From Pseudonocardia sediminis (GTDB taxonomy: Bacteria; Actinomycetota; Actinomycetes; Mycobacteriales; Pseudonocardiaceae): a stretch of 64,000 bases of DNA. Positions 10,773-48,578 of this stretch are shown piece by piece (position 1 is the stretch's first letter; each line of letters begins with the position of its first letter). A program made the translations under genes and the position numbers. Location of the stretch: assembly GCF_004217185.1 (NCBI RefSeq), contig NZ_SHKL01000001.1, positions 1,820,001-1,884,000 of the forward strand, in the 5' to 3' direction. The notes beneath the pieces are model-generated. The model was not told the origin of the DNA. It searched no databases and saw nothing but the letters and a program-made list of their open reading frames with translations.

Positions 10773-10844
10773 GGGCGCGTAGCTCAGCGGGAGAGCACTC
10801 GGTTTACACCCGAGCGGTCGCAGGTTCGAACCCTGCCGCGCCCA
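10773..10844 (+). tRNA. tRNA-Val (anticodon UAC)
   Basis: A complete 72-nt cloverleaf. The acceptor stem GGGCGCG (10773-10779) pairs with CGCGCCC (10837-10843). The D-arm is AGCTCAGCGGGAGAGC, the anticodon stem CTCGG/CCGAG encloses loop TTTACAC with anticodon TAC at 10805-10807, and the T-arm is GCAGGTTCGAACCCTGC. The discriminator base is A10844 and CCA is not encoded. Its 3' half (10803-10845) is repeated at 34,224 and 47,400, marking it as the integration site of the adjoining islands; the gene itself is left intact. Confidence 0.96.
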
Positions 10845-10845
10845 C
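10803..10845 (+). repeat. attL-like repeat: 3' half of tRNA-Val
   Basis: These 43 bp run from the anticodon loop to the end of the acceptor stem. They recur at 34,224-34,265 (one substitution near the loop, one deleted C in the T-arm) and at 47,400-47,442 (two substitutions). Identity segments such as integrases use are typically this part of a tRNA gene, so I read this copy as the left attachment site of island 1. Confidence 0.8.
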
Positions 10846-25258: not shown

Positions 25259-25389
25259 GGCGTCAAAGTCTGCGGCCAGACTTCCTTGGGACGGCGCTGG
25301 GTGCGGGTCCAGCCCGTCACGACTGGACTATTCGGTGCATCGTCAATCGCGCTGGCAGACTCACGAGATCTTCGGCGACTTGCGTAGCC

Positions 25390-31781: not shown

Positions 31782-31985
31782 GCGCAGAGCGTAGCGAGTC
31801 CGCTCTCTAGAGTTAACAGGCCATCGACCGAACGAGGGTGGTGCTTGTCCTTCTCGCTCACCGGTCACCGCTCACCGCTGACGGCGACAGCCAGCCATGC
31901 TGCCGCCGATCTTCGGAGCCGGGCCGGCGGATCGAGGACTTCCTCCGTCTGGCGGCGACCGGCCCACGCCGATGTCGTTTGGAGC

Positions 31986-32957
31986 TCATCGATCGCAGAG
32001 TCCGCCGGGTGAGGGCTGCTCGCTGGGAGGAAGCGTCGTGATCGTGGTGTTGACAAGAGCAGCGTCGAGATAGCGGGCGTAGACCTCGTCCGGCCACGCG
32101 TCGGTCGTCACAAGCCGCATCGCCTGAACGACCTCGTCCAGCGTGCGGGCCTCGAAGGTCCGGCTGTCGATGAGGCAGCGCCCGTAGTCCCGGCCCGCGA
32201 CGGCGCAGCGCGTGTTGCCGACGGGATAGAGCAGCACGAACGTCCCCGCGTCCCAGCCGTCGTTGCTGTTGTCGAGCATCCGGAGCGCGAGCAAGTGGTC
32301 CAGCCAGATCTGCTGAAGCGGGAGAGCGGACAGGAGGTGGAAAGTCGACGGGTCGAAGGCGGCAGTGTCTCTCGCGATCTCGACGTAGAGGCCGTCCTTG
32401 TTCGACGCCGGCGTGCCGCGGAGGTCCTCGTGATACTTGACCTCGATACCGATGAAGCTGTGGCCGTGGTCGCCGTCGTACTCGATGAACACATCGAAGG
32501 CGGACCGGTTGGCGGTGTAAGTCGCGTCGATACGGCCAGGGGACCACTCGAACCGGATGTCGCGTACGGCGCGGATGTCCGGCCAGATCTGGCGGAGCGT
32601 CGTAGTCGCGAGCTCCAGGTCGGCGGCCAGCGGGCCGAACATGTTGAAGCACAGCGGTTGGCTCGAGAGCAGGTCGACCCAGAGTCGTGGGCGGAACAGC
32701 AGTGCCCCGGTGCGTGGTGCGTCGGTGACCGCCTTGTGTACCTGCTCCCGGGCCATTGCGGATAGGTAGTTCCGCAGTTCCGGGGGTTGAGCGACGGAGG
32801 TTTCCAGGCGGGATCCGAGGGGCGAGCCGTTGTGGAGCCCGGCAGGTAGCGATTGCTGTTCGCGCCACAGAGCCTGGTGCAGTCTGGCTCGTTGCTGCCA
32901 CGGGTTGTCGCCGTGGACGTGAACGTGGTGAGCGTCCAGAACGGATCGCGGGATCAT
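31986..32957 (-). CDS. PGN_0703-like PD-(D/E)XK endonuclease
   Basis: 323 residues from the ATG at 32955-32957 (MIPRSVLDAHHVHVHGDNPW). The core reads GRIDATYTANRSAFDVFIEYDGD followed by SFIGIEVKYHEDLRG, giving Asp...Glu-x-Lys of the PD-(D/E)XK superfamily in the form I associate with the PGN_0703-like putative restriction nucleases. A longer frame to 33053 exists but its first 32 residues are not family-like. It reads in the same direction as the ABC operon, about 200 bp upstream of it, and may be its effector nuclease or an independent module. Confidence 0.65.
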   Translation of the reverse strand: MIPRSVLDAHHVHVHGDNPWQQRARLHQALWREQQSLPAGLHNGSPLGSRLETSVAQPPELRNYLSAMAREQVHKAVTDAPRTGALLFRPRLWVDLLSSQPLCFNMFGPLAADLELATTTLRQIWPDIRAVRDIRFEWSPGRIDATYTANRSAFDVFIEYDGDHGHSFIGIEVKYHEDLRGTPASNKDGLYVEIARDTAAFDPSTFHLLSALPLQQIWLDHLLALRMLDNSNDGWDAGTFVLLYPVGNTRCAVAGRDYGRCLIDSRTFEARTLDEVVQAMRLVTTDAWPDEVYARYLDAALVNTTITTLPPSEQPSPGGLCDR

Positions 32958-33069
32958 GCTCGTAGTACATCGAAGGGCGCTGCCCGACGGAAGTAGGTTG
33001 GCGCGCTCGTCGTGTCGGCTGCTGCCGGGGATAGTGTCTGATTGATTCTGCAATTCGTCAGGGGGCGAT

Positions 33070-34113
33070 GTGGTCCGTCGTATGAGGGACGTCCGGTATC
33101 GCGAGGAACAGTGGCGGGATCGGTACGCGCCTCACGTCGCCCCGATCAACGAGTTGGTGGACGAGCTCGGCACGCGCGACGAGGCGGGCCATCCGCCGTA
33201 CGTGGCGCCGATGTACAAAGGCGTCCGCGCTCGAGCGCTGGCGATCTTGCGCGATCCCGGTCCGAAGGCGGGCGGGGAGAACGGCTCGGGTTTCCTCTCG
33301 GTGGAGAACGACGACCAGTCCGCGCAGCGGCAGGACGAATTCTTCCGTGGGGCAGGGATCGATCCGGCCGAAGTCGTGCCGTGGAACGCCTACCCCTGGT
33401 ATATCAACAGCAAGCCCACGCGCGAGCAGCTCCAGCAGGGCACCGAGCCGCTCCGGCGTCTGATCGCCCTCCTGCCGCATCTTCGTGTGGTGATCCTGGA
33501 AGGCATCGATGCCAAGGCGGCGTGGGATCTGTTCGTCGCCCGGCACGGGGCGTGGGTCCGATCCCGAGAGATCGAAGCGGTGTCGACCTACCACCCGAGC
33601 CGGCAGGCGTTGCAGCACCCGGATCCGGCCGAGCGGGACCGGCGGGAGGAGCACATCCGGTCGACTCTGCGCCGGGCCGCGCGCGTGATCGATGAGCACG
33701 ACACCGGGCCAGGTGCCGAGAAGCCGTCGCCCTCTGCCCCCGAGGGGCTGGGGGTCATCGATGTGGACGTCATCGGCCGGCCGGCGGCCGCCTCGACGCC
33801 GTCCGAATTGCTGTGGCGTGCGGCGGTGACGGCTGCGATCGGGCGTCGTGAGGTCCCTGATGGTGTGCGCTTTGCGATCGAGGTGGAGTTCCGGCTGCCG
33901 TCGTCGCGAGAGCGCAACGACCGATGGGATGTCGACGGCCTCCTCACGCCGACGTTCGAGGCGTTGGGCGGAGCAATCGGGTGGCGGCGGGGACAGGGGC
34001 GACCGCAGGCCGACGACGAGCGAATCGACCGGATCGTCGCGTCGAAGCGTCCGGCAACTAGGGACGAGGAGCCGGGAGCGCGGCTGCGCATCGTGCCGCT
34101 CGCAAGTCCGTGA
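33070..34113 (+). CDS. UDG-fold protein fused to a RusA-like resolvase domain
   Basis: 347 residues; the GTG at 33070 follows AGGGGG, with an ATG 12 bp on as an alternative. Residues 50-180 resemble the uracil-DNA glycosylase superfamily: ALAILRDPGPKAGG in the motif 1 position, NAYPWYIN, and STYHPSRQAL with the HPS of motif 2. From about 245 the sequence changes: VRFAIEVEFRLPSSRERNDR, then WDVDGLLTPTFEALGG and DDERIDRIVASKR match the RusA Holliday-junction resolvase layout, including the D-x-D and DD acidic residues. I do not know this fusion. It is the last gene of island 1, and its stop lies within the right-hand CGTGACACG repeat. Confidence 0.55.
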   Translation: MVRRMRDVRYREEQWRDRYAPHVAPINELVDELGTRDEAGHPPYVAPMYKGVRARALAILRDPGPKAGGENGSGFLSVENDDQSAQRQDEFFRGAGIDPAEVVPWNAYPWYINSKPTREQLQQGTEPLRRLIALLPHLRVVILEGIDAKAAWDLFVARHGAWVRSREIEAVSTYHPSRQALQHPDPAERDRREEHIRSTLRRAARVIDEHDTGPGAEKPSPSAPEGLGVIDVDVIGRPAAASTPSELLWRAAVTAAIGRREVPDGVRFAIEVEFRLPSSRERNDRWDVDGLLTPTFEALGGAIGWRRGQGRPQADDERIDRIVASKRPATRDEEPGARLRIVPLASP

Positions 34114-34223: not shown

Positions 34224-34265
34224 TTTACACTCGAGCGGTCGCAGGTTCGAACCTGCCGCGCCCAC
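34224..34265 (+). repeat. Second tRNA-Val 3'-half repeat (island junction)
   Basis: The 42 bp match 10803-10845 with a C-to-T change next to the anticodon loop and one missing C in the T-arm. No 5' half precedes it, so it is not a tRNA gene. It carries the UAC-type loop (TTTACAC). It is the right end of island 1 and the left end of the next inserted segment. Confidence 0.8.
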
Positions 34266-34552
34266 CTCTTGTCTCCAGCGGGTCTGTTGCGTTCATGGTC
34301 CTCGGCCCCACTAGTGCGTTCGTTGCCTAGCTAACCGCTCGCGTCGTGGTCGCGTAGCGACGTCCGGAAGAGCACACCGTCGGCACGCGAGCCCCCTGAC
34401 GAGCTGCCGACCGGCTGTGGTGGAGGCGCTATTCGCTCCATGGGCGGACCCATCAGCACAATTGATGATCATGTTTAACGGACTCGTGGGGACCGTCGAC
34501 ACACCAGCTGATCGGCTCAGTAGGAGCCTGAGAAGCGGCGGAGGTTGGGCAC
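34266..34552. other. Non-coding stretch after the second att repeat
   Basis: Together with 34,114-34,223 this forms about 440 bp holding only the CGTGACACG pair and the tRNA repeat. I see no integrase remnant, no long dyad and no frame with convincing codon use. The GGAGG at 34,540-34,544 belongs to the following gene. Confidence 0.5.
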
Positions 34553-35516: not shown

Positions 35517-35517
35517 A
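35479..35517 (+). other. Possible 12-residue leader frame coupled to the kinase gene
   Basis: ATG at 35479 opens a 12-codon frame (MLLDLFPAIGPS) whose TGA (35515-35517) shares its A with the ATG of the kinase gene. GAGGGG lies 12 nt upstream. The kinase ATG itself lacks a clear ribosome binding site, so ribosomes finishing this frame could reinitiate on it. No evidence beyond this layout. Confidence 0.3.
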
Positions 35518-38500
35518 TGGCCCGCCTACACATCCTGGGTGATTGGCACGGGCCCGGCGAGGAGAAGACCGCGCGGCGGCTCGCCGATGAGCTCCCGCAA
35601 AGCTGGGACGTAATCGCCGGGAGGCAGATCCCGGACTCGATGAGCACCGTCGATCTTGATTTGGTCGTTGTCGGTGACCACGCGATCTTCGTGTGCGAGG
35701 AGAAGGCCTGGGGACGCGAGATCCAGGTCGGCGAGGTTGCCTGGTACGTCGACGGGGACCGGCGCCACAACCCCGCGAACCAGGTCGCCCACGCGTCCCG
35801 GGTGCTGGCGGGTCGGCTGAAGACCAAGGTCAGTGGATGGGCTGCCGCCCTCGGAGCGCTTCCGCGGGGCGCGCGTCCGGTGTCCGGGCATGTGGTGCTG
35901 TCGCACGACACACTCGTTCTGCGCGGCGCCGACGAGCTCGGTCCGGGGATTGTGCTTCGCCTCGCCGATGCTGCCGCGCAGCTCGTGGAGCGTGACGTCG
36001 AGTTCCCGGGCGCGCTCGCCCCGCTCCGCCCGAAGCTCATGAGTTATCTGCTAGGCCTCGGGCAGCGCGCCGAGGACCACCTACCGCGAAAGATCATGCA
36101 GTACCGCGTGCTCGGCCGGCCCATGACACAGGGCAACGCGCGGGTCTTCCCGACACAGAACCCGGCGGGGGAGAACGTCGGTCTGTACTGCGTGCCGGTC
36201 ACGGGTGCTAAGGATCCGGATGCGGCGCGGCGGCTCGCCACCCGTGAGCACGATGCGTTGCAATCGCTCGCTGCTCAGGAACGCACCTGGCGCGTCCAGG
36301 GATGGTTTGACTGGGAGGGTTTCCTCGTCACCCCGATCGTCGTGGCGATGGACGGGACCAGCCTGGGCAAGCTCGCGCACGACGCGGACGGGCCTGTCGA
36401 TGTGGAGGTCGGCCGAGCGGTCGTCCACGACGCGTTCGTCGCGCTCGCCGATGTCCACAGCCACGACATCACCCACCGCGCCCTTCAGTTGCGCAGCATC
36501 GAGGTGACACCGCCCCCGCAGAACCGCGTCCGGTTCCGTGATCTCAGCCGGGCCCACCTGCCGTCGACCCAGACGATCGCGCCCGTCCTCGGCGAAGACC
36601 ATCCGTCTGCGGCGTTCCAACCACCAGGGACGACCCCGGAGTTCTTCCAGCCAGGCGACGACGTCTACGCGCTCGCCCTGTGTCTCGTGCAATGGCTTCA
36701 CGGGGACGCCGGCGAGGTACCCGATCACAACCTCGCCCGGTCCCGTGCAGCCGGTCATCCGGTCTTCGGTGACGTACTGGAGCGCTGCCTCGACCCGGAC
36801 ATCACCGCGCGCCCGACAGCGTCCGCGGCCGCGGCACTCACCAGCCCCGCACCGCCGGAGCCCGACCCGCAGCCAGTCCCGAAGCCCGGACCGCCGGCCT
36901 CGGTCGATGACGAGCGAATGGAGCCGAACGGGCTGCTCGCCGGCCGCTACCGTCTGCTGAACCGTCTTGGTGAAGGGGCCTGGGCGGTCACCTGGCTCGC
37001 CTGGGACGAGCGACTGGAGCTGCAGCGCACCCTCAAGCATCTCCATCCGCACCGGTCGCAGTTCGAGCACGTCCGCGCCGAGTACATGAACGCCGACGCG
37101 CTGGCCAGCCGCTACTGCGCCCGGGTCTACGACGTCCTGGCGCGGCCCGAGCCCGGTGTCCTGGTGCAGGAGTACGTGCCCGGACAGAGCCTGCATGACG
37201 CCGCTCAGAATGGGCGCATTACCGATGAAGAGCAGGTGCGGCGGATCGCCGTCGACGTCCTCCGCGGCTTGGCGGACGCCCACGAGCAGCTGCTCTACCA
37301 CCGCGACGTCAGCCCGAACAACATCATCGTCCGTGAGGACGGTAGCGCTGCCCTGATCGACTTCGGGCTCTCGATGCGGGTGAGCGACGCCAAGTCCGCG
37401 GTCGGCTCACCGCCCTACACCGCACCAGAGGTGATCACCCGTCGGCACTGGAGCCCCGCAGCCGATATCTACAGCGCGGCGGTTTCGGTCCTCCACGCAG
37501 TCCTGGGCCGCTACCCGTACGCGGGCCTGGCACTCGACGAGCGACGCATGCTGCTGCCGCCGTCGGACGCCCAGCGCCGCCGTTACGGGGGTGCTCTGCT
37601 CGACACGCTGTTCCGGGCGGTCGCATTCGACGAGAACGACCGTCCGCAGACCGCCCGCGCGTTCGCCGATCAGCTTGCGCGGGCGCGCGACACGCCGCCG
37701 CCGGATCCGACGCGTCGTTCGTTGGTCAACCCAACCGTCGATGCGCTACGCGGCCTCTACCGGGGCAGCGGCATCGGCAATGCGGGCAACCGTGGCATGG
37801 ATGACGCGTTCGCCCACGACACCTACGTTCTCACCCGGCTCGACGAGGAACTCCTGCCCGCCGTGATCGGTGGCGAGCTCGATGTCGTCGTGCTCAGCGG
37901 CAACCCGGGAGACGGGAAGACGTCCTTCCTGGTCCAGGTCGGTCAGGCCCTCGACGGCCGCGGTGCGGAGACACTTGCCGCTGACGCGGCAGGCTGGCGG
38001 AAGAGGCTCGACGGGCGCACCTTCACGGCCGTCTACGACGCCTCCGAGTCGCACGGCGACCTGACCGCGGACGACCTCATGCGCTCAGCGCTCGACCCGG
38101 GCGACGGCGACGACCCCACGCGACGAACCGTCCTGCTCGCGGCTAACGACGGCCGGGTTGCGCAGTTCTTCGGCGAGCACGCCGAGCGCTACCCGGAGGT
38201 CATCGCAGCGCTGGATCGTCAGCGCTCTAGCGGTCCCGCTCCAGGCGCGCGAGTCGTACTCGTGGACCTCAAGCGCCGCGCCCTTGCTCTGCCGACCGGT
38301 GTCGGCCGCACCGGGCTCGGCCTCGGAATCCTCGACTCATTGACTGCACCCGGACGTTGGGAGATGTGCTCGGGCTGTATCGCCCATGATGTGTGCCCCA
38401 TGCGGCGCAACGCTGAACTTCTTCGCGACGACGCTGCCCGAGATGCCCTCTCGGAGCTCTTGCTGACCAGTCATCTTCGGCGCCGCCGCCGAGCAACCGT

Positions 38501-39347
38501 GCGCGATGTGCGGTCCGCCTTCGGCTGGGTGATCACCGGAGATTTGTCCTGCGCCACGGTGCACGCCGAGTACGCCCGCGGACAGGATCCCGGCGCCGGA
38601 CCGGCCCGGCTGGCCCCTGACCTCGCCTTCACCCCGGACACCGGCGACTACCTCGTCGAGGAGTGGTCCGAGCTCGACCCGGCCGGGCTCGCCGCGCCTG
38701 GTGTCGGTCGCGCCGCCCGCGCAGACCGGCGGCTGCTGCCGGACTTGTCGGCGGTCGAGCGGGATGTGATGGGATCGCTGAAGCGCTCGCTGTTCTTCGG
38801 CGCGTGGTCGGCCCCGCGCGCGGCGCACCGTGAGGTACGCGGCTATCGCTACTTCGATCAGTACCTCGATGCCCTTGGTACGCCGGAACCTGCGCTGGCA
38901 CGTGTGCTTCTCGGAGTCTCGCGCATCCTGGCGTACCCCGGGTACGACGGCGGGCACCTCGCTCTTCGCGACCGCGCCTACGACGACCCCTCGGTGCGCG
39001 CCATCGTCGTGGTCAAGGAACTGCGGGCGGACGAGTTCCGGCTCGAGCCGGCGACCTCGCCGTCGCCCTATGTCGAGTCGTTCACCGACCAGCTCGTCCT
39101 GCTCCACCCCGCTTCGAACGCACGACTGCGAGTGACGGTCGACCTAGCCGAACTGCTCCTTCGCGCGGCAGATGGTGAGATCGTCGCCGACACCGCGTCC
39201 GCAGCCTTGCGTCAAGAAATCGAGGGCTTCGGGAACCGGCTGCGGCTGCAGCCGGCACGGTCGGTGCGAGTAGTCGACGGCTCCGGCCGCGCCGTTCGCG
39301 CCACCGTGATCGACGGCGGGCGCATCGCCCTGGAGGACGGCACGTGA
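35517..39347 (+). CDS. NERD-pseudokinase-kinase-P-loop protein (PglW/DptF-like fusion)
   Basis: 1276 residues in four parts. (1) Residues 1-190 form a NERD/PD-(D/E)XK-like domain: STVDLDLVVVG then VCEEKAWG, with Glu61-x-Lys63. (2) About 195-440 is a degenerate kinase: HRALQLRSIEV and FRDLS replace HRD and DFG. (3) About 475-725 is a complete Ser/Thr kinase: LGEGAWAVTW, Lys507, YHRDVSPNN (Asp597), IDFGLS (Asp615) and an APE (APEV). (4) About 765-1276 is a P-loop ATPase: LSGNPGDGKTSF (Lys801) and a Cys cluster CSGCIAHDVC (951, 954, 960), resembling DptF of phosphorothioate-dependent restriction. NERD plus tandem kinase is the PglW layout of BREX type 2. The combination with part 4 is unfamiliar. 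The gene overlaps the next by GTGA. Confidence 0.75.
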   Translation: MARLHILGDWHGPGEEKTARRLADELPQSWDVIAGRQIPDSMSTVDLDLVVVGDHAIFVCEEKAWGREIQVGEVAWYVDGDRRHNPANQVAHASRVLAGRLKTKVSGWAAALGALPRGARPVSGHVVLSHDTLVLRGADELGPGIVLRLADAAAQLVERDVEFPGALAPLRPKLMSYLLGLGQRAEDHLPRKIMQYRVLGRPMTQGNARVFPTQNPAGENVGLYCVPVTGAKDPDAARRLATREHDALQSLAAQERTWRVQGWFDWEGFLVTPIVVAMDGTSLGKLAHDADGPVDVEVGRAVVHDAFVALADVHSHDITHRALQLRSIEVTPPPQNRVRFRDLSRAHLPSTQTIAPVLGEDHPSAAFQPPGTTPEFFQPGDDVYALALCLVQWLHGDAGEVPDHNLARSRAAGHPVFGDVLERCLDPDITARPTASAAAALTSPAPPEPDPQPVPKPGPPASVDDERMEPNGLLAGRYRLLNRLGEGAWAVTWLAWDERLELQRTLKHLHPHRSQFEHVRAEYMNADALASRYCARVYDVLARPEPGVLVQEYVPGQSLHDAAQNGRITDEEQVRRIAVDVLRGLADAHEQLLYHRDVSPNNIIVREDGSAALIDFGLSMRVSDAKSAVGSPPYTAPEVITRRHWSPAADIYSAAVSVLHAVLGRYPYAGLALDERRMLLPPSDAQRRRYGGALLDTLFRAVAFDENDRPQTARAFADQLARARDTPPPDPTRRSLVNPTVDALRGLYRGSGIGNAGNRGMDDAFAHDTYVLTRLDEELLPAVIGGELDVVVLSGNPGDGKTSFLVQVGQALDGRGAETLAADAAGWRKRLDGRTFTAVYDASESHGDLTADDLMRSALDPGDGDDPTRRTVLLAANDGRVAQFFGEHAERYPEVIAALDRQRSSGPAPGARVVLVDLKRRALALPTGVGRTGLGLGILDSLTAPGRWEMCSGCIAHDVCPMRRNAELLRDDAARDALSELLLTSHLRRRRRATVRDVRSAFGWVITGDLSCATVHAEYARGQDPGAGPARLAPDLAFTPDTGDYLVEEWSELDPAGLAAPGVGRAARADRRLLPDLSAVERDVMGSLKRSLFFGAWSAPRAAHREVRGYRYFDQYLDALGTPEPALARVLLGVSRILAYPGYDGGHLALRDRAYDDPSVRAIVVVKELRADEFRLEPATSPSPYVESFTDQLVLLHPASNARLRVTVDLAELLLRAADGEIVADTASAALRQEIEGFGNRLRLQPARSVRVVDGSGRAVRATVIDGGRIALEDGT

Positions 39348-40996
39348 CGATTACTCTGCCCAAGCCGCTGCGGACCTACCAGTACCGACCGCTGACGGTC
39401 TTCTCTCTGCTCGACACCGATACCGACCGCGTGCTGCCTCAACTGTTCGAGATGTGCGTGAAGGGCGGTCGATCGAGTCGGTCGCGGACTGACGCCGGTG
39501 ACTTCCTTGGTTATCGAACGACATTGCTGCGTAGCGGGTCAGTCGTCGGATATACGGAACAATGGCAATCCCTTGTGGATGGCTGGCTGCGGACATGTGT
39601 CGTTGACATGGGTGCTTTCGGGCGTGAGCGCTCGGGTGAGCAGATGCTCGCGGTCGCGCCACTGACGTTGGCGTCGTACCGGGCAGGACTACCGAAGGAC
39701 AGATCCCGGCACCGCGGCATCGACGACTTCGCCTATCAAGTTCTCGTCGACGGTATCGCTCGTACTGGGTCGGAGAACCCGGTGGCCGATCTGCGCGAGC
39801 TGGTAATCCGGACTGTTGGCCGTGGTTTATCCATCGGACCGCAACCGCGCTGGGAGCCACATCTCGATGATCCCTCCAAGCTAGACATCGGGGCATTACT
39901 GGAGTTTCGGTTCCTCGAGGGTTTCGAGATAGCGGATGCTCGCGTTATCGACGGCAGATCGGCGGAGAGCCCATTGCCCGCAGTCGCAGCACAAGTAGGC
40001 GCCGACCTCCTCGGCCATCTGCGCGCCTACGGCCCGATCGTCCCCACCCAGTCACTTATGGCGAGTTTTGCCGCGCTGCTCGCGACAGGGGTGTACACGT
40101 TCACCCTCCGGGCAAACTCAGTCGGCCGGGAGCTCCTACGTCTCGGCGGTGATGTGGTTCCCGACATGGCAGGCCACGAGCATGGCGTCGCCGCGCCTCC
40201 GTCCCAGCTGGAAATCTACTGCGATCTCACTGGCGACCTCGGGTCGATGTCCGACCGGCTCGCTCGGCGCTGCGTCGAGCGGGACCTCGACCGCACCCGT
40301 CTCGCGTTCCGCGACCGCATGACGTTTGTCGTCATCGAGCAGGCCCTCAGCCGCATCCCGGCGGAGCGGGTGCGCTTTGACGAGCTCAAGCGACCTGACC
40401 AGCTCGCACTGCTCGCCTCGCTGCGTGGTCACCGTCGTGTCGAGTCCTATTGTGAGGGCCGTATCGACGACCTGGTCGCCGATGTTGAGGATGGCGACGC
40501 GGTAACCGAGACCGAACTTGAATTTCTACGCGAGATCCAGGGGCGCGACGAACCTGAGCTCGACAAGCTTCTTGACATTATGCAGTTTGTCAACGAGAAC
40601 AAGGCGCTGAAGAACTCGGTCGCGTGGCTAAGCAGCGTGGGCGGTCTGACCAAGCCATACGGACTACTCGACGGGGTCTCCACCAACCGCCGCTCCTGGC
40701 GCTATGCCCCGAGCGACGAACAACTAACCGCTCTACTCATGGCCCTGTTCCTCACCCCGGACGGCACCTCTTACCGACGCACCATGCCACTTCAGGATGT
40801 TCTCGCCGGACTACGCAACCGCTACGGTCTGTTGATCGACCGGCCGCCGGCGTTCCTCGACGGTGCCGAGGCACGGGCCGCGGCAACCGCAAACCTCGAG
40901 GCGTTCAAGCGCCGGCTGCAGCTGCTCGGATGCTTCGACAGCTTGTCCGACGACTTCTCCGTGCAGACAGTCCGCCACCCCCTCGGAGATACCTGA
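39344..40996 (+). CDS. Unrecognised middle subunit of the kinase/HerA operon (DptG position)
   Basis: 550 residues; its GTG start overlaps the kinase stop (GTGA) and its TGA overlaps the HerA start (TGATG), so all three proteins are coupled. No catalytic motif, membrane segment or cysteine cluster is visible. The start (TLPKPLRTYQYRPLTVFSLLDTDTD) and the conserved-looking block ELEFLREIQGRDEPELDKLLDIMQFVNENKALKN suggest a helical scaffold. In DptFGH operons the middle gene encodes DptG, a protein of roughly this size and similarly featureless; equivalence is inferred from position only. Confidence 0.6.
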   Translation: MTITLPKPLRTYQYRPLTVFSLLDTDTDRVLPQLFEMCVKGGRSSRSRTDAGDFLGYRTTLLRSGSVVGYTEQWQSLVDGWLRTCVVDMGAFGRERSGEQMLAVAPLTLASYRAGLPKDRSRHRGIDDFAYQVLVDGIARTGSENPVADLRELVIRTVGRGLSIGPQPRWEPHLDDPSKLDIGALLEFRFLEGFEIADARVIDGRSAESPLPAVAAQVGADLLGHLRAYGPIVPTQSLMASFAALLATGVYTFTLRANSVGRELLRLGGDVVPDMAGHEHGVAAPPSQLEIYCDLTGDLGSMSDRLARRCVERDLDRTRLAFRDRMTFVVIEQALSRIPAERVRFDELKRPDQLALLASLRGHRRVESYCEGRIDDLVADVEDGDAVTETELEFLREIQGRDEPELDKLLDIMQFVNENKALKNSVAWLSSVGGLTKPYGLLDGVSTNRRSWRYAPSDEQLTALLMALFLTPDGTSYRRTMPLQDVLAGLRNRYGLLIDRPPAFLDGAEARAAATANLEAFKRRLQLLGCFDSLSDDFSVQTVRHPLGDT

Positions 40997-43900
40997 TGAC
41001 CGCGGTACCCACCGCACCTGCCCCGACCGGGCTGCCCGAGCTGATCGTCGACACCCTCGCCGCGCAGATCGTCGACGCGATCGAGGGCCACGGCTCCGGG
41101 CACTGCGTGCGCATCGACAGCATCCGGCAGGCCGATGCCGCGGCGCTGGTTCACACGGTACGGAGCAAACTCTCCGCCCCCGGTGATGCCGACGTCCACG
41201 TACTGGCGGGGGAGACCCAGGACGCCGACGGCGATCTCGCGGTGTTCGCCGAGCGCGCCGTCGAGCTGCGCAACCGCAAGGAACGCCCGCTCATCCTGAT
41301 GGTCCCCATCGGTAGTGGCAGCAGCGCCAGCTCGTTAGACAACAGCTTCGCCCGGATCGATGTCGCATCCCTTCTTAACGAGACCGGAGAGAACCTCGTC
41401 GCCGACATCGGCGACGCCGAACTGCAGGACGCGGTCCGCCGCGTCGGCCGCGAGCTCGGCCGCGAACGTCCCGTCGAGGCGTGGGCCCGCTACGTCGCGA
41501 CAGTCCTCGACGATCCCTGCTGGGAGACCCTCGGCAAAGCGTTGTGGATGGTCGGGCTCATCCCGGACCTCGGCGGCGACGGACTGGTCGAGCGGTTGTC
41601 GCGCAACGCTCGATGTGTCAAGGCGATCTCACGGCCGCTCCGGGCCGTCGCGTCCGTTCCCGACCGCCTCAGCGGAGCCGGAATACCCGAGGGGGAGGTC
41701 CGCGACCGCATCACGCAGTACCTCACCGCGCCGGCCGTCGACCTCTCCGACGCCGTCGCCTGGGCCAGTGCACTCACAGGCTCGGAGTGGGCAGGCGAGC
41801 TCACGTTCGAGCGCTGGCCGCACGGGCAGGCGATGCAGGTTCCTGTCTCGTCATTGCAGGTCACGCCCTTCCTTAAGGAGGACGGGGCGTTGCGTGCGGG
41901 GACCCGTCTGCTGCAGGACAGCCCCGGGGAGCTGCCCTATCTCGAGCTGGGGGAGGACAGCCCCGCATCGGTCACCCTCATGTGGAAGACCGTCCCGGCG
42001 ACGACGATGGCGATCGACCGCTGGCTGCTGGAGGCCATTCCTCCGGAGGACCTGCGCGATGCGGACACCGAGGCGTTCGCGAAGCAGACGGTCAAGGGCG
42101 ACAAGCGGCGTGGCACGGTCCGGATCGACCTCGCCGAGGAGGATCTCGCAGCTGCCGCTCTGCTGGTGATCAGGCTGACCGCTCTCGACGAGACCGGGCA
42201 GCCGGTCGTCCTCACCGGCGGTATCGACGCGGTCGAGGAGAGCCAGCAGTTCGCCGTCCGCTGGGAAGCCGAGGCGGCCACCCCGACCGGCGGGCGTCGC
42301 GCCTCGGCTGCGTCCATGGCCCAGGCTCGTCTGGATGCTGCACTGGACGGTCAGGACGACCTCGGTGCGGACGCCCCGGCCTGGGACGGGGGCACGTTCT
42401 CGGTACGCCTGGGCGGACGGCGGACCGTACGTCTGTCGCTGAGCCCGGCTCTGACAGAGCTGCAGCGCCGTACGTTCGCCGACCGTGGCGTCACCACTGC
42501 CTGGGAGGCGCAGGGCCGACTCGGGGAGAACCTCGACAGCGGCGCGATCGAGCCGATCCGGGAGGACCTGCCGCAAGCGCTGGCCGAGCGCCGCCGCAAG
42601 CTGTTCGACCGCCTCGATGCCCAGCATCCGCACGACGTCGTCGAGGCGCTCGAGTGGACGGACGATCTGCGCGCAGAAGTTGACACCTACTGCCAGACCT
42701 ATAAACGGGCTCTCGATGCTGCGAGCGACCCCACGACGCGGCGCGCTCTCCTGACGATGGACACGTTGATGCTCAGCGTGGCCACCGCCGGACATGCGCC
42801 CATCGCATCGGTCGTCGTCCTCCCGCTGCACCCGATGCGCCTGGCCTGGGCGGCCGAGCACACCGCCACTCTCGGCCGCTGGGCTCGGGAGCTCGCCGAC
42901 CTGGGGAAGTCGAAGGTCAGGCGTAAGCAGGCCGTCGACACCCGCCTGGTCGCCCGGGTCGTCCCGGCCAACCTGCCCTTCGCGGTGTTCGGGGCGGACG
43001 GGTCGCCGTTCGTCTATGTCCGCGAGGCCACCCTCGGCACGGGTCTTTACCTGGACCCGGGTGAAGCGGAGCCGGGCGCCGCGATCCAGTCCGTCTTCGA
43101 CGTCCTGGGTCTCGACCGGCGCGACGTGACTCCCGAGGTTCCGGCGTCGGTCCTCGCCGAACGGGTGGAGGCCTACCGGACGGTGAACCCGGGGCAGAGC
43201 GCGATGCGGTTGCTCGCCTACAACCCGGGGTCCGGCGACCTGCTGGCCCGGGCGTTGTCCAGCTCGGTCCTCGAGCCTGGCGGTGACGACGAGCTGGCCG
43301 CCGCCCCCGCACGCATCGAAGTCACTGCCTACAGCTCTCGGCTGTCCCTGACCGACCCGCTGCCAGCCCTGACCGACCTGCAGGGGCGGGTTGCGGCACG
43401 TCAGGTGCGGGGTACGACGTCATACCTGACCCCGCCGCTCGGGGTCAGCGTGCGCCCGCACCGGCTGCTCGCCTCCGACGACGCCGCTGCCCACCTCGGG
43501 GTGGTGTCCGACCTCGCCCACGTGCAGGCCGACGCGGCGGCCGAGGCCACCGACGTCGCGGTGCGCGACCCTGCCGCGTCGTTCCGGAATCTGCTGACCC
43601 CCGCGTCCAACCAGCGTGCCGCCGTCGACGGCGCCGTCGTATGGAGGACTGCGCCCGCGCTGCGGGCCCGCACCCGTGACGGTGCCTCTGACGCGGTCGA
43701 CGCACACCGCTCCTACCAGGCGGCGCTAGCTTCGGAGCTCGGCTACTCGGCTAGCTCGGTCGCTCTCGCTGCTCGGCTCGGACCCGAGCAGCAGGAAACC
43801 TTGCGGGCCGCGCACGACCGCGCCGACTGGGTTCTCACCCTGGACCGCAACCTCGGGGTCGACCTGTTCACTGGCCCCGCAGGACGTCCCGACCCGGACA

Positions 43901-46137
43901 GGCCCTACATCCTCGACTACGCCCCCGACTTCTTAGAGGGCCTCGGCCCACGGTTGACGGTCACCACGACCCACCGCGGGGAGGTGGAAAGGCTGCTCGC
44001 GGACGCGATGATCGAGCTCGACCTCGCCACCGTCGACCAGTCCGTCCGTGAGATCCTCAGCCACCTGCAGGTGGTGTCGGGTCGGCTTGCGATGCGCCTG
44101 ATCGGCCGGTCGAACCTGGCGACCGAGGCCGTCAGCCTCGCCGCGCTCATGGCACACCTACGTCGTCGCGGCGACCTCGATGGCACGGTCGTCATACCGG
44201 TCGACGCGCATATGGACGTCTTCGGTGAGTCCGGCGCGGAGGCCGGGGCGCGGCGCTGCGACGTCGTCCTCGTCCGGTCGACCGCCCGAACGCTGCGCTT
44301 CGAGTGTGTCGAAGTGAAGTCGCGCAAGGCGGCCGCGCTGCCCACCGCGCTGGTCGACGACATCGTCGAGCAGCTGGATTCGACTGTTTCGATGCTGCAG
44401 GACACCTTCTTCCGCACCGACCCGCCACGTATCGACGCCGAACTGCAGCGAGCACGGCTCAGCGGCATCCTCCGCCACCACGCGGACCGCGCACTCGCGA
44501 TGAGGCTTCTCGACGCCGGCCGGCGGTCGGAAATCGAGCGGCTGTTCGAGAAGGTGGAGGACGGCACTCTGGTTCCGGAGATCGGGCGTCGTGGTTATGT
44601 CGTCAGCCTCGCCGGCCCGGAGGGATTCCCGGCGACCCACCGGGGCGTCCGCATTGATGTGCTGACCGCCGCCGATCTGGGCGAGGTCGGGTTCTCGGCA
44701 CGAGTCAGCAGTGGTGAACCGGAGCTGCCGACCGCCAGACCGCCGGAACTGCCGGCGGCTGCAAGACCCCCAGTGCGGCCGTCGCCGCGTCCACGCACGG
44801 AACTCGGTCTTGGCGCGCCGCTGCACGCCCACCGGCCGGACGCGACGCGTCCGGTCGCATCCGCGGCCCCTCCGGGGCCGACCCGTTCTGTTCCGTCCCC
44901 CGACGGTCCGGCGCAACTGCCCACGTCACCGCGCCCGCCATCACCGGGGCAACGAACTCCGCCCAGGCCGTCCGACCCCGGACCCACCGGCGTCGAGTCG
45001 ACGGTTCCTCTCCGTCCGGTCGCGCCGTCGGGTAGGCGTCCCGGGACAGCTGCCAACGGGCCGGACACGGGCGGTCAGGACCCGACGCCGGGCACCCCTG
45101 CCTCGACGGCCTTCCCCGCGTCGGCCGAGGTGCACCTCGGGGACGACGCCCATGCCGGACAGGCACGCTGGCGTATCAGCACGGCCGGCAGTCCACATCT
45201 GTTCGTGCTCGGTATCCCCGGGCAGGGTAAGTCGGTGACGACCCGCCGCATCCTCAACTCCTTCGCAAGCCAGGGACTGCCCTCGCTCGTGCTCGACTTC
45301 CACGGAGACATGGCAGCCGAGCCGCCGGGACATTCCGCGGTGCTGGACGCGACCGAGGGGCTGCCGTTCTCCCCGTTCGAGCTCCGGGGAGACGACCACA
45401 GCCGGTACCAGCAGGCGGCCTGGGAGCTGTCCGAGGTGATCGGCTACGTCTGCGGCCTTGGCGAGATCCAGCGCAACGCCGCCTACGAGGGCTTGCGTGA
45501 GGTCTACAAGAATCGGGGTTTCGGCTCGGCCGCGGGCCCGGACCGGCTGCCGACGATGGAAGAGTTGTCGGAGGCGGTCGCGGCTGTCGAGAGCGCCGGA
45601 CGGGGCCGAAACGTCGTCGCCCGGATGCGACCCCTGAGTGACTTCGGCCTCTTCACCGACGGTGCCGAGCAGTCGTTCGCCGCCCTGCTGCAACGTGGGG
45701 TCGTGCTCGACGTGCACGGGCTGATGGAGCAGGTGCAGGTCGCCGCAGGCGCGTTCGTGCTCCGCAAGGTGTATCGCGAGATGTTCCAATGGGGACAGTC
45801 GAGTCAGCTACGGCTCGCCGTGGTCCTCGACGAAGCACATCGGCTCGCTAAGGACGTCACGCTCCCGAAGATAATGAAGGAGGGGCGCAAGTACGGGGTT
45901 GCGGTCGTAGTGGCGAGCCAGGGTGTGGCCGACTTCCACAAGGACGTCCTCGCGAACGCCGGTACGAAGGTGGCGTTCCGCTGCAACTATCCGGAGAGCC
46001 GCACGGTCGCGGGCTTCATGCGGGGAAGGGCGGGCCAGGACCTAGCCGTCGCCCTGGAGAACCTGTCCGTGGGGCAGGCCTACGTGTCGACTCCCGACCG
46101 GGCCGAGGCGCGGAAGGTGTTCATGGCCCGGGACTAA
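40996..46137 (+). CDS. HerA-type ATPase with embedded PD-(D/E)XK motif (DptH-like)
   Basis: 1713 residues from the ATG at 40996; the frame is open further left but that part only overlaps the previous gene. The first 1000 residues have no recognised domain. Near 1089-1108 the sequence RRCDVVLV (Asp1089) and FECVEVKSRKAA (Glu1106-x-Lys1108) fits a PD-(D/E)XK nuclease core. A proline-rich linker spans about 1240-1385. The C-terminal domain is a HerA/FtsK-type motor: Walker A GIPGQGKSVTTR (Lys1412), LVLDFHGD, Walker B VVLDEAHRL (Asp1612-Glu1613), MKEGRKYGV and FRCNYPESR. DptH proteins are of similar size with a C-terminal HerA ATPase. A DNA-translocating restriction motor is the likely role. Confidence 0.75.
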   Translation: MTAVPTAPAPTGLPELIVDTLAAQIVDAIEGHGSGHCVRIDSIRQADAAALVHTVRSKLSAPGDADVHVLAGETQDADGDLAVFAERAVELRNRKERPLILMVPIGSGSSASSLDNSFARIDVASLLNETGENLVADIGDAELQDAVRRVGRELGRERPVEAWARYVATVLDDPCWETLGKALWMVGLIPDLGGDGLVERLSRNARCVKAISRPLRAVASVPDRLSGAGIPEGEVRDRITQYLTAPAVDLSDAVAWASALTGSEWAGELTFERWPHGQAMQVPVSSLQVTPFLKEDGALRAGTRLLQDSPGELPYLELGEDSPASVTLMWKTVPATTMAIDRWLLEAIPPEDLRDADTEAFAKQTVKGDKRRGTVRIDLAEEDLAAAALLVIRLTALDETGQPVVLTGGIDAVEESQQFAVRWEAEAATPTGGRRASAASMAQARLDAALDGQDDLGADAPAWDGGTFSVRLGGRRTVRLSLSPALTELQRRTFADRGVTTAWEAQGRLGENLDSGAIEPIREDLPQALAERRRKLFDRLDAQHPHDVVEALEWTDDLRAEVDTYCQTYKRALDAASDPTTRRALLTMDTLMLSVATAGHAPIASVVVLPLHPMRLAWAAEHTATLGRWARELADLGKSKVRRKQAVDTRLVARVVPANLPFAVFGADGSPFVYVREATLGTGLYLDPGEAEPGAAIQSVFDVLGLDRRDVTPEVPASVLAERVEAYRTVNPGQSAMRLLAYNPGSGDLLARALSSSVLEPGGDDELAAAPARIEVTAYSSRLSLTDPLPALTDLQGRVAARQVRGTTSYLTPPLGVSVRPHRLLASDDAAAHLGVVSDLAHVQADAAAEATDVAVRDPAASFRNLLTPASNQRAAVDGAVVWRTAPALRARTRDGASDAVDAHRSYQAALASELGYSASSVALAARLGPEQQETLRAAHDRADWVLTLDRNLGVDLFTGPAGRPDPDRPYILDYAPDFLEGLGPRLTVTTTHRGEVERLLADAMIELDLATVDQSVREILSHLQVVSGRLAMRLIGRSNLATEAVSLAALMAHLRRRGDLDGTVVIPVDAHMDVFGESGAEAGARRCDVVLVRSTARTLRFECVEVKSRKAAALPTALVDDIVEQLDSTVSMLQDTFFRTDPPRIDAELQRARLSGILRHHADRALAMRLLDAGRRSEIERLFEKVEDGTLVPEIGRRGYVVSLAGPEGFPATHRGVRIDVLTAADLGEVGFSARVSSGEPELPTARPPELPAAARPPVRPSPRPRTELGLGAPLHAHRPDATRPVASAAPPGPTRSVPSPDGPAQLPTSPRPPSPGQRTPPRPSDPGPTGVESTVPLRPVAPSGRRPGTAANGPDTGGQDPTPGTPASTAFPASAEVHLGDDAHAGQARWRISTAGSPHLFVLGIPGQGKSVTTRRILNSFASQGLPSLVLDFHGDMAAEPPGHSAVLDATEGLPFSPFELRGDDHSRYQQAAWELSEVIGYVCGLGEIQRNAAYEGLREVYKNRGFGSAAGPDRLPTMEELSEAVAAVESAGRGRNVVARMRPLSDFGLFTDGAEQSFAALLQRGVVLDVHGLMEQVQVAAGAFVLRKVYREMFQWGQSSQLRLAVVLDEAHRLAKDVTLPKIMKEGRKYGVAVVVASQGVADFHKDVLANAGTKVAFRCNYPESRTVAGFMRGRAGQDLAVALENLSVGQAYVSTPDRAEARKVFMARD

Positions 46138-46228
46138 GTCTGGCGGTAACAAGGTGCGGACCAAGACTTGCTGTATGCGTGCGGCATCAGCTGTGATTGG
46201 ACTAGAGGGCGGTCAGCTCAAGCGCTGG

Positions 46229-46594
46229 TTCCTCATCCGATCACGCATCTCGGGCGGCGCGAGCACTTCCACGTCGGCCCCGAGACGCACGAGATGCCGA
46301 GCCGCGCGGTCGGGACGTTCGAACCGCAGATCCAGCCGCGCCCAGCCATGCTCGTCCCGCTCGACGTCGTCCTGCAGTGGTAGTTCCAGCCGCCCCTCCT
46401 CCAGCATCGCCAGGAGTGGCTCCGCCGCCGGAGCGACGCGCACCGTCACGACGTACTCGGGGATCGGGCCGAGTAACGCTTGTCGCAGTGCCGTCCACGC
46501 TTCGGCGAGGTCGAAGTCGGGCGGTCGGTGGAAGCGTAGGTCCCGCACCGTGCGGACCGCGGTCTTGCTCGAGGCCCCCATCGCGGGCAGGAGG
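46229..46594 (-). pseudogene. Truncated WYL-regulator copy with internal deletion
   Basis: The - strand encodes a C-terminal block (RFHRPPDFDLAEAWTALRQ, IPEYVVTVRVAPAAEPLLAM, RDEHGWARLDLRFERPDRAAR) nearly identical to the intact WYL regulator at 48,700-49,659. Just upstream of that block the copy jumps from sequence matching 49,053 to sequence matching 49,296, deleting 243 bp between two GGTCCCG repeats; the repeat survives once at 46,539-46,545. The helix-turn-helix part is absent beyond 46,594 and no start codon remains. It is a dead partial duplicate. Confidence 0.8.
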
Positions 46595-47399: not shown

Positions 47400-47442
47400 T
47401 TCACACCCGAGCGGTCGCAGGTTCGAGCCCTGCCGCGCCCAC
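47400..47442 (+). repeat. Third tRNA-Val 3'-half repeat, CAC-type loop
   Basis: The sequence matches 10803-10845 with two changes, one of which turns the anticodon loop TTTACAC into TTCACAC, the loop of tRNA-Val(CAC); the other is A to G in the T-loop. The 5' half of a tRNA is missing. I read it as the far-right attachment remnant. The changed loop suggests it was carried in from, or left by, a different tRNA-Val isoacceptor. The 306 bp between the DUF302 start and the next gene hold nothing else except the short frame at 47,488. Confidence 0.75.
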
Positions 47443-47487: not shown

Positions 47488-47517
47488 GTGAGCGTTCAGA
47501 CCGGAGCGTGGCAATGA
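47488..47517 (+). other. Possible 9-residue leader frame overlapping the AmiC-like gene
   Basis: GTG at 47488 follows a strong GGGAGGA and opens nine codons (VSVQTGAWQ) whose TGA overlaps the ATG at 47514 as ATGA. The binding-protein gene has no other good ribosome binding site, so translation of the leader may deliver ribosomes to it. Alternatively it is the tail of a displaced gene. Confidence 0.3.
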
Positions 47518-48578
47518 GCGGGCGGCCGGACCGACCCATCACGGTGGCGCTCGTGGTGCCGTTGCACGGATCCGAGCAGATGTACGGGCCGTCGTGCACG
47601 TTGTCCGCGCGGCTGGCCGCCGACGAGATCAACAGTGATGGTGGTCTGCTGGGCCGGGAGGTGCGGCTGCACATCGTCGACAGCGCGGGGGCCCCGTACG
47701 CCGTCGCCGACGAGGTGGATCGGCTGATCACCGCGGATCGCGTCGACGCTGTCGTCGGATGGCATCTCTCCGCGCTGCGGACGGTTCTCGCCCGCCGCGT
47801 CGCCGGACGGATCCCGTACGTGTTCACCGCGCTCTACGAGGGCGGTGAGTCCACGCCGGGAGTGTTCTGCACCGGTGAGACGCCGGGCCGCCAGTTGTAC
47901 CCGGCCCTGGCATGGATGGCGCGCGAGGTCAGTGTCCGTCGCTGGTTCGTCGTCGGCAACGACTACAGGTGGCCACGGGAGACCACCACGGCGGTTCGCC
48001 GTTTCGCCCGTAGCCATCCCGGAGTCAGTATCGAGGACGAGATCTACGTCGACCTCGGCACCACCGACTTCGCCGGGATCTCCCGCCGGATCGAGCAGAG
48101 CACCTGCGACGGCGTCCTGATGTTGCTCGTCGGTCGCGACGGCGTCGAGTTCAACAGGCGCTTCGCCGCCCACGGGTTGGATGCGCAGTGCGCCCGTCTG
48201 ACACCGCTGATGGACGAGACGATGCTGTTGGAGACCGGGATCGACGACAGCCGTGACGTGTTCAGTACGGCCGGCTTCTTCGAGACGCTCTCGAACGAGG
48301 ACAGCCTCGCGTTCGGGGCCCGATACGTCGAGCGGTTCGGGCCCGACGCCCCGGTCCTGAACAGCCCCGGCGAATCGTGTTACGAAGGTATGCAGCTTCT
48401 GGCGGGGCTCGTTCGGCGGGCCGGGTCGGCCGACGTCGGCCGGATCTGCGAGATCGCGGACGGGACGCGGTACCACGGTCCCCGTGGAGAGATCGCCGTG
48501 GCCGGGCGTCACGTCGATCAGCCGATCTACATGGCGGTCGCGGACGGGTCGAGCTACGACGTCCTGGCCTCCCTCTGA
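47514..48578 (+). CDS. AmiC/UrtA-like type I periplasmic-binding-fold protein
   Basis: 354 residues (GTG at 47508 is an alternative start). The sequence VALVVPLHGSEQMYGPSCTLSARLAADEINSDGGLLGREVRL and VVGWHLSALRTVLARRV identifies the Leu/amide/urea branch of type I substrate-binding proteins. There is no signal peptide or lipobox, so it should stay in the cytoplasm, as the amide sensor AmiC does. No permease, amidase or ANTAR partner is adjacent. A cytoplasmic ligand-sensing role is possible; the ligand is not predictable. Confidence 0.8.
   Translation: MSGRPDRPITVALVVPLHGSEQMYGPSCTLSARLAADEINSDGGLLGREVRLHIVDSAGAPYAVADEVDRLITADRVDAVVGWHLSALRTVLARRVAGRIPYVFTALYEGGESTPGVFCTGETPGRQLYPALAWMAREVSVRRWFVVGNDYRWPRETTTAVRRFARSHPGVSIEDEIYVDLGTTDFAGISRRIEQSTCDGVLMLLVGRDGVEFNRRFAAHGLDAQCARLTPLMDETMLLETGIDDSRDVFSTAGFFETLSNEDSLAFGARYVERFGPDAPVLNSPGESCYEGMQLLAGLVRRAGSADVGRICEIADGTRYHGPRGEIAVAGRHVDQPIYMAVADGSSYDVLASL

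What the first reader, a model, noticed from the sequence alone, without database searches (positions are those of the whole stretch)
35517..46137. Three-gene kinase/DptFGH-like operon with no modification genes: candidate new defence system
Seen: three genes joined by GTGA and TGATG overlaps. The first protein strings together a NERD/PD-(D/E)XK-like domain, a pseudokinase, a complete Ser/Thr kinase and a P-loop ATPase with a CxxC-x5-C cluster. The second is 550 aa without motifs. The third is a 1713-aa HerA-type motor with an embedded D...ExK motif. Known: NERD plus tandem kinase is the PglW layout of BREX type 2; a P-loop protein, a featureless middle protein and a large HerA ATPase is the DptF-DptG-DptH restriction layout. 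Inference: this is a DptFGH-like effector put under phosphorylation control. No dndABCDE, sspABCD, pglX/pglZ or dpd genes lie within the window, so how it would tell self from non-self is open.
Basis: partly seen in the sequence, partly recalled or inferred. Interest (0 to 1): 0.88.

Follow-up and report, generated by a model that had tools for sequence, protein, structure and literature searches.

The report
Methylase-free sister of MADS phage defence
Three overlapping genes encode relatives of the DndFGH and MADS restriction complexes with protein-kinase domains built in, but the genome lacks the MADS methylase genes and the phosphorothioation gene dndC that mark self DNA for those relatives; it is likely a phage-defence machine, and its kinase is predicted to keep it from attacking its own host.

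Summary

Unusual is the company it keeps. MAD7 trees separate a MADS clade (10 of 12 rows have methylase MAD2 and specificity subunit MAD5 upstream) from a clade of 33 rows in Actinomycetota and Chloroflexota where none was seen as their own. This trio belongs to the second. Of 30 genomes bearing it, 1 has MAD2/MAD5 (with a second, MADS-type trio) and 1 has dndC. Active-site residues are conserved and selection is purifying (dN/dS 0.08-0.19, four pairs). Other methylating systems sit nearby in some loci, this one included, but of differing kinds.

My reading: a standalone DndFGH-type restriction complex whose kinase, not a DNA mark, holds it in check. That control step is inferred. New variant of a known kind.

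The parts
35517..39347 (+). Gene 1 (MAD6/DndF-like, 1276 aa): NERD nuclease domain, pseudokinase, Ser/Thr kinase, DndF-type P-loop core
35556..35828 (+). NERD domain, residues 14-104; D48 and K63 kept, position 61 is E or D, in 38 of 38 aligned proteins
36474..36506 (+). Pseudokinase catalytic loop (HRA in place of HRD), residues 320-330; degenerate in 36 of 38 (L046 and L047 keep HRD)
36948..37526 (+). Ser/Thr kinase domain, residues 478-670; D597, N602 and D615 kept in 38 of 38, lysine K507 in 37 of 38
37875..39344 (+). DndF/SspF-type core from residue 787: Walker A K801 and C-x2-C-x5-C (951-960), both 38 of 38
39344..40996 (+). Gene 2 (MAD7/DndG-like, 550 aa), predicted DNA-binding subunit
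40996..46137 (+). Gene 3 (MAD8/DndH-like, 1713 aa): SAM-methyltransferase fold without catalytic motif, nuclease motif, HerA motor
43060..43977 (+). Methyltransferase-fold region, residues ~689-994; lacks the (N/D/S)PP(Y/F/W) motif
44260..44319 (+). PD-(D/E)XK-type motif D1089...E1106-x-K1108; complete in 40 of 42 aligned proteins
45136..46095 (+). HerA-type motor, residues ~1381-1700; Walker A K1412, Walker B D1612/E1613, Q1642
34224..34266 (+). Left att-like repeat of the trio's segment: copy of the tRNA-Val 3' part (with an indel)
47400..47442 (+). Right att-like repeat (95% of 43 nt)
10773..10845 (+). tRNA-Val(TAC); its last 43 nt (10803-10845) is the reference copy of the repeat

Best explanation
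The three genes encode a relative of the DndFGH and MAD6-7-8 restriction complexes that likely attacks invading DNA, and its fused protein kinase is predicted to hold the complex in check, a task that a DNA mark performs in its relatives. Shown by sequence or model: a DndF-type P-loop core carrying a NERD domain, a pseudokinase and a complete kinase; a DndG-fold partner; a DndH-type protein with a methyltransferase fold lacking its catalytic motif, a PD-(D/E)XK-type motif and a HerA motor. Also shown: this genome has no MADS methylase or specificity gene and no dndC. Inferred: the DndG-like subunit and the dead methyltransferase domain bind DNA, the HerA motor pulls DNA and the nuclease nicks or cuts it. 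Inferred: in uninfected cells the kinase phosphorylates the complex (or a partner) and keeps nuclease and motor off; infection, sensed perhaps through the P-loop core or the pseudokinase, lifts the block. The NERD domain may be a second nuclease.
For: Family. Lineage: in MAD7 trees no clade-B row (0 of 33) shows MAD2/MAD5 of its own, against 10 of 12 MADS rows with both upstream (nine directly, one 8 kb away). Whole-genome search of 30 trio genomes finds MAD2 and MAD5 over cut-off in 1 and DndC in 1. Working machine: catalytic residues kept, dN/dS 0.08-0.19 in four pairs of relatives. Need for restraint: without phosphorothioation DndFGH harms its own host (PMC11662687, abstract and passages). 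Phosphorylation can be an off switch: phage kinase JSS1_004 inactivates DndFGH by phosphorylation (PMC12345140, abstract and passages). Defence setting: type III restriction and Lamassu-like neighbours, att-like repeats.
Against: No experiment; anti-phage activity is itself inferred from homology. MADS has the same NERD-pseudokinase-kinase head and also a methylase, so the kinase is not peculiar to the methylase-free lineage. The PMC12345140 authors say phosphorylation alone is insufficient against the system in the cell. Rakesh et al. read the fused kinases as backup effectors. Methylating systems do lie near some trios: a type III pair 13 kb from this one, another in L035, a C5 methylase in L014, MADS genes in L023 and a complete BREX with PglX directly upstream in Ktedonobacter L029. 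My neighbour scan saw about 6 kb upstream at most loci and missed that PglX; L029 was the only locus without its own methylase flag that I followed further out. No phosphatase or sensor partner was found. The nuclease-region model has moderate confidence (pLDDT 77) and its matches cover the methyltransferase part, not the nuclease.
Confidence: 0.38

Rival explanations
1. The kinase and NERD domains are effectors or a trigger, not a brake: on sensing invasion the complex is switched on and the kinase phosphorylates host proteins (an abortive response), with NERD as a second nuclease.
For: Rakesh et al. propose this for the fused domains of DndF (PMC10853773, passages). The second kinase resembles PD-T4-6 kinases, a PADLOC defence family (1.3e-41). 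The second kinase's catalytic residues are conserved.
Against: It does not by itself explain what keeps the DndH-type nuclease from the host genome in a lineage without a mark of its own; Rakesh et al. answer with DNA-sequence and nucleotide sensing, untested here.
Confidence: 0.3
2. The trio does rely on DNA modification, but borrows the mark from a methylase of another system, such as the type III Mod at 20271-22379, a BREX PglX, or another host enzyme.
For: A type III Mod/Res pair lies in the adjacent repeat-bounded segment and another near the L035 trio. A complete BREX (brxA, brxB, brxC, pglX, pglZ, brxL) stands directly upstream of the Ktedonobacter trio. R. anhuiense carries two DNA methylase genes just downstream of a related trio. 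In Actinomadura xylanilytica MAD2-MAD5 lie about 5 kb from the clade-B trio, nearer than to the MADS-type trio.
Against: Methylases were seen near 5 of 35 clade-B loci and are of differing kinds (type III twice, C5, MAD2, PglX); defence genes cluster in islands anyway. In this genome the best MAD2 match is 25 bits against a 720 cut-off and MAD5 has none. The scan was limited to held flanks and simple searches, so this rival is not excluded.
Confidence: 0.24
3. It is a decayed MADS that has lost MAD1-5 and is on its way out.
For: It shares MAD6-7-8 homology and order with MADS.
Against: It falls in a well-supported separate clade (99/99), all three reading frames are intact, residues are conserved and dN/dS is low in relatives. 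Actinomadura xylanilytica holds both a trio of this clade and a MADS-type trio.
Confidence: 0.04

Closest known systems
MADS (methylation-associated defence system), genes mad6-mad7-mad8; the primary paper is recalled (Maestri et al. 2024), not found in the library
   Same: Same three genes in the same order; NERD, pseudokinase and kinase head with conserved residues; gene 2 passes the MAD7 cut-off.
   Different: No MAD2 methylase or MAD5 S subunit in the genome. Gene 1 and gene 3 fall below the MAD6 and MAD8 cut-offs (354.9 vs 460; 58.8 vs 175). Separate clade. HerA motor: in two other clade-B proteins DndH scores above mad8 (120.6 vs 54.2 and 92.8 vs 72.7), in the window they tie (77.1 vs 75.1); in two MADS proteins mad8 leads (179.5, 131.9) and no DndH match falls in the motor.
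DndFGH / SspFGH phosphorothioation-dependent restriction modules
   Same: Order F-G-H; DndF-type P-loop core, DndG fold, DndH-type dead methyltransferase fold, nuclease motif and HerA motor.
   Different: Adds NERD, pseudokinase and kinase in front of the DndF core; no DndC in this genome and over cut-off in only 1 of 30 trio genomes.
Kinase- and NERD-fused DndF variants of Rakesh, Aravind and Krishnan 2024 (PMC10853773)
   Same: The stated fusion (NERD, inactive and active S/T/Y kinases in front of the DndF core) is this architecture, and that paper already calls DndFGH standalone.
   Different: Its main text has no hit for 'MADS'. Supplement look-ups were capped at 0, so whether this clade is listed there is unknown.
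PglW of BREX type 2
   Same: NERD plus kinase head; weak profile similarity (58.4 bits).
   Different: Far below the PglW cut-off of 990 bits; gene 1 continues into a DndF core.

Membership tests
MADS | MAD7 equivalog NF047733 over its cut-off | tested here: met
   463.2 vs 410 bits
MADS | MAD6 equivalog NF047741 over its cut-off | tested here: not met
   354.9 vs 460 bits
MADS | MAD8 equivalog NF047742 over its cut-off | tested here: not met
   58.8 vs 175 bits
MADS | MAD2 methylase (NF047738) in the genome | tested here: not met
   best match 25.2 bits vs cut-off 720
MADS | MAD5 specificity subunit (NF047740) in the genome | tested here: not met
   no match; PADLOC mad5 also none
DndFGH/SspFGH restriction module | DndF-type P-loop core in gene 1 | tested here: met
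   SspF 1.2e-15 at residues 790-1017; the reciprocal profile hits six F proteins, 59-171 bits, two of them confirmed as SspF
DndFGH/SspFGH restriction module | DndG fold in gene 2 | tested here: met
DndFGH/SspFGH restriction module | DndH with nuclease motif and HerA motor | tested here: met
   DndH 1.4e-22, DptH 7es4 1.7e-8, D1089/E1106/K1108; the nuclease is identified by motif only
DndFGH/SspFGH restriction module | Phosphorothioation writer (DndC) in the genome | tested here: not met
   TIGR03183: no match in G000; the Ssp writer SspD was not searched in this genome
BREX type 2 | PglW equivalog NF033442 over its cut-off | tested here: not met
   58.4 vs 990 bits
BREX type 2 | pglX and pglZ present | not tested
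   not searched in this genome
Anti-phage defence system | Protection against phage or plasmid | not testable with these tools
   needs the bench

The most novel reading that the evidence does not exclude
A restriction machine without DNA marking: self is protected by protein phosphorylation. The built-in kinase keeps a DndFGH-type nuclease-motor off by default, and infection releases it; T7-like phage kinases that switch DndFGH off would then imitate a brake that this lineage carries within itself.
Probability: 0.22. Interest if true: 0.87.

Novelty: new variant of a known kind. Interest (0 to 1): 0.55.

Why it matters
DndFGH complexes harm a host that lacks their DNA mark (PMC11662687, passages), yet here is a conserved lineage that keeps the whole cutting machine without the matching mark-writing genes. 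How it spares its own genome is directly testable. The natural contrast is strong: the sister clade keeps a methylase and specificity subunit, and one species, Actinomadura xylanilytica, holds trios of both kinds. It also ties MADS to DndFGH through three homologous genes.

Tried and rejected
Sequence search of the PDB with the gene-2 profile gave nothing useful (one designed protein at E 0.79); only the fold comparison worked. PADLOC mad2 and mad3 models were too unspecific for whole genomes (matches in 14 of 14 control genomes), so I used the NCBIfam models with cut-offs. The VIA list for the gene-3 piece shows methyltransferase-like folds; that no nuclease appears there says nothing about the nuclease part. 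Megablast of the trio against plasmids found nothing; gene 2 found nothing in phages and one plasmid, the Piscinibacter MADS. Empty-site test: the right-flank gene (47514-48578) lies on another contig or far away in the relatives looked at, so no clean empty site was shown; in the nearest relative by the left-flank gene (G946) the tRNA has no second repeat copy in the 12.8 kb held downstream. I first took the 563-aa gene at 10935 for an integrase. Pfam and PHROGs give it no hit, and read by eye only its start looks integrase-like, so I dropped that. The idea that 28966-31419 is MAD3 (PADLOC mad3 1e-21) was dropped: no NCBIfam MADS3 match is among the 25 of 52 families shown, and it sits with a PDDEXK_13 gene, more like Lamassu. 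The MADS primary paper was not found, so I say nothing about what is not in print on MADS kinases.

Limits of the counts. Neighbour genes come from a simple gene caller of my own, which misread parts of L012, L025 and L056. Clade-B rows L028, L034 and L091 are cut by contig ends upstream and L090 holds 0.5 kb; the other gene-1 starts measured have 3.8 kb or more upstream (27 of 28), mostly about 6 kb. L037 (also cut) was left out of the trees. Five tree rows (L089, L090, L091, L093, L094) come from genomes that I did not search whole for MAD2, MAD5 or DndC; several of the 29 others are draft assemblies or MAGs. L017 (identical to L016) was dropped from both trees and six further rows, near-copies or one outgroup row, from the second. 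Residue counts use 38 gene-1 and 42 gene-3 proteins, leaving out fragmentary calls. Odds were lowered a little (main reading 0.42 to 0.38, borrowed mark raised from 0.20 to 0.24, novel case 0.25 to 0.22) after searches showed a BREX with a methylase beside one trio and a type III pair beside another.
Full report
What is there. Three + strand genes at 35517-39347, 39344-40996 and 40996-46137 overlap by four bases (GTGA) and one base (TGATG). Gene 1 has a NERD domain (residues 14-104) and a Ser/Thr kinase (478-670) by Pfam; gene 3 has a HerA-type motor at its C-terminus; gene 2 has no Pfam hit in this copy. Between NERD and kinase lies a degenerate kinase copy (HRA at 320-322).

What family. NCBIfam identifies gene 2 as MAD7 above its cut-off (463.2 vs 410). 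Gene 1 and gene 3 match MAD6 (354.9 bits, E 8e-106) and MAD8 (58.8 bits) below theirs. PADLOC gives SspF for gene 1 residues 790-1017, SspG for gene 2 and DndH for gene 3. A protein search listed 108 relatives of gene 2, the query itself included, out of 7998 scored candidates; several NCBI entries are already named 'methylation-associated defense system protein MAD7'. A complete MADS on a Piscinibacter plasmid (L039) shows the full layout: a small HTH gene, then MAD2, 3, 4, 5, 6, 7, 8, with MAD2-MAD8 all over their cut-offs; its MAD6 and MAD8 are 1391 and 1858 aa.

Is it functional? In 38 gene-1 proteins (28 clade B, 10 MADS), NERD D48 and K63, kinase D597, N602 and D615, Walker K801 and the three cysteines are in all; position 61 is E or D; the kinase lysine is in 37; the upstream kinase copy lacks HRD in 36. 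In 42 gene-3 proteins (30 clade B, 12 MADS), D1089/E1106/K1108 is complete in 40 (not L034, L090), and the Walker A lysine and Walker B D-E are in all. dN/dS for all three genes in four pairs of clade-B relatives is 0.08-0.19; the window's own genes were not in these pairs.

Two lineages. A genome-contig scan gave 29 loci; with sampled genomes and plasmids I built a MAD7 tree of 50 rows. The MADS clade (12 rows, 99/98) has MAD2 and MAD5 upstream in 10, directly before gene 1 in nine and 8 kb away in the tenth (L048/L049); L082 has neither in the ~5 kb held and L087 is cut by the contig end. In the window's clade (33 rows, 99/99: 20 Actinomycetota, 13 Chloroflexota) none was seen as its own; three of these rows are cut upstream and one holds 0.5 kb. 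A second tree with Rhizobium and DptG rows agrees (99/99 and 100/99) and adds a third, long-branched lineage (two Rhizobium plasmids and one Chloroflexota genome) beside MADS at 95/84. Whole-genome searches of this genome plus the 29 locus genomes found MAD2 and MAD5 over cut-off only in G014, Actinomadura xylanilytica. There MAD2-MAD5 lie between the clade-B trio (about 5 kb away) and a second, MADS-type MAD6-7-8 (about 8 kb away); I assign them to the MADS-type trio by the tree, but sharing is possible. DndC is over cut-off in 1 of 30 (G002, Pseudonocardia oceani).

Neighbours. In 8 of the 29 loci a UvrD-like helicase gene (520-586 aa) stands directly before gene 1, with a gap of 8 bases or fewer or an overlap; the window lacks it. 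Among 324 neighbour proteins of 35 clade-B loci, a methylase motif and phmmer scan flagged the window's type III Mod, a C5 methylase (L014), a Mod-like gene (L035) and the MAD2 start in L023; a fifth flag (L011) is a TPR protein by Pfam. Pfam confirms a type III pair in L035. Following one more locus further out, I found a complete BREX (brxA, brxB, brxC, pglX, pglZ, brxL) directly upstream of the Ktedonobacter trio L029, so the scan of held flanks undercounts. The methylases seen are of differing kinds; none is a consistent partner.

Rarity. MAD7 matches occur in 3 of 396 sampled genomes of the phylum (own included), 10 of 249 of the family (9 over cut-off; the tenth is an SspFGH trio), and 22 of 251 Chloroflexota (11 over cut-off). 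These counts mix MADS and clade-B trios.

Motor. Two clade-B HerA motors score higher with DndH than with mad8 (120.6 vs 54.2; 92.8 vs 72.7), the window's about equally (77.1 vs 75.1), and in two MADS motors mad8 leads with no DndH match in the motor (179.5; 131.9). This fits the repeated motor capture described by Rakesh et al., but I did not build a motor tree.

Setting. A 43-nt copy of the tRNA-Val 3' part recurs at 34224-34266 (77% without gaps; it holds an indel) and 47400-47442 (95%). The trio thus lies in a 13-kb repeat-bounded segment behind a second, 23-kb one. In G928 the same tRNA has a second repeat copy 12.8 kb away. No integrase was identified: the gene behind the tRNA has no Pfam or PHROGs hit. 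That this is a mobile island is inferred.

How it works. PMC11662687 (abstract and passages) reports that DndFGH is a nickase and translocase and harms cells lacking phosphorothioation. PMC12345140 (abstract and passages) reports that phage kinase JSS1_004 inactivates DndFGH by phosphorylation, while adding that phosphorylation alone is insufficient in the cell. Together with a lineage that has a built-in kinase and no matching mark, the simplest reading is that this kinase restrains the complex. That step is inference. MADS carries the same kinase head together with a methylase, which weakens the argument, and Rakesh et al. see the fused kinases as backup effectors.

Verdict. The genes are named and their architecture is in print. 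A well-supported sister clade of MADS without its methylase, with conserved active sites, is a new variant of a known kind, as far as the searches let me tell; the supplements of PMC10853773 could not be looked up.

Noticed in passing
window 17644-22379 (-): Type III restriction-modification pair: ResIII protein (17644-20274) and N6_N4_Mtase (20271-22379), in the segment next to the trio.
   Followed up: partly
window 28966-33053 (-): SMC/Rad50-like ATPase (817 aa; PADLOC mad3 1e-21, LmuB 1.1e-14), a ~100-aa gene and a PDDEXK_13 nuclease (8.1e-83): Lamassu-like order.
   Followed up: partly
window 10773-47442: Three copies of the tRNA-Val 3' end bound two tandem segments, 10.8-34.3 kb and 34.3-47.4 kb; the same tRNA has a second repeat copy nearby in G928.
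   Followed up: partly
window 10935-12626 (+): 563-aa gene right behind the tRNA: by eye an integrase-like start running on into unrelated sequence, no Pfam or PHROGs hit; perhaps a recombined remnant.
   Followed up: partly
window 13502-17626 and L010:16896-20990: A two-gene cassette (873 aa unknown plus 486-aa AAA_19 protein) also stands next to the trio in Actinomycetospora endophytica.
   Followed up: no
window 22490-28484 (+): UvrD-PDDEXK_1 fusion (922 aa), AAA_5 protein (627 aa) and a 404-aa gene in a row; possibly another defence operon.
   Followed up: no
window 33082-34113 (+), L015:3740-4813: A 343-aa protein without Pfam hit has a homologue shortly before the trio in Pseudonocardia pini.
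   Followed up: no
window 46228-46527 and 48742-49041: 300-nt direct repeat at 90% identity within - strand reading frames, the first of them the shorter.
   Followed up: no
L029 and L117 (Ktedonobacter sp. SOSP1-85): A complete BREX gene set (brxA, brxB, brxC, pglX, pglZ, brxL) lies directly upstream of a clade-B trio, in the same direction.
   Followed up: partly
L023, L048, L049: Actinomadura xylanilytica carries UvrD plus a clade-B trio and, downstream, MAD2-MAD5 and a MADS-type MAD6-7-8; between them a CHAT-NTPase protein (1416 aa).
   Followed up: partly
L046:22118-22783: A Bacteroides finegoldii plasmid MADS (M, S, kinase, MAD7, MAD8) is followed by an overlapping PP2C phosphatase gene: a possible kinase-phosphatase pair.
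   Followed up: no
L014:6236-11659: In Pseudonocardia kunmingensis genes 1 and 2 are called as one 1807-aa reading frame; a true fusion or a frameshift was not decided.
   Followed up: no
L018, L019: Microbispora and Nonomuraea trios are 98-99% identical in protein although the genera differ: recent transfer likely.
   Followed up: no
L111, L114, L092: A third, divergent lineage of NERD-kinase trios on conjugative Rhizobium plasmids and in a Chloroflexota genome; in R. anhuiense two DNA methylase genes follow it.
   Followed up: partly
L034, L090 (gene 3): Two Chloroflexota trios have lost the E-x-K of the gene-3 nuclease motif while keeping the motor.
   Followed up: no
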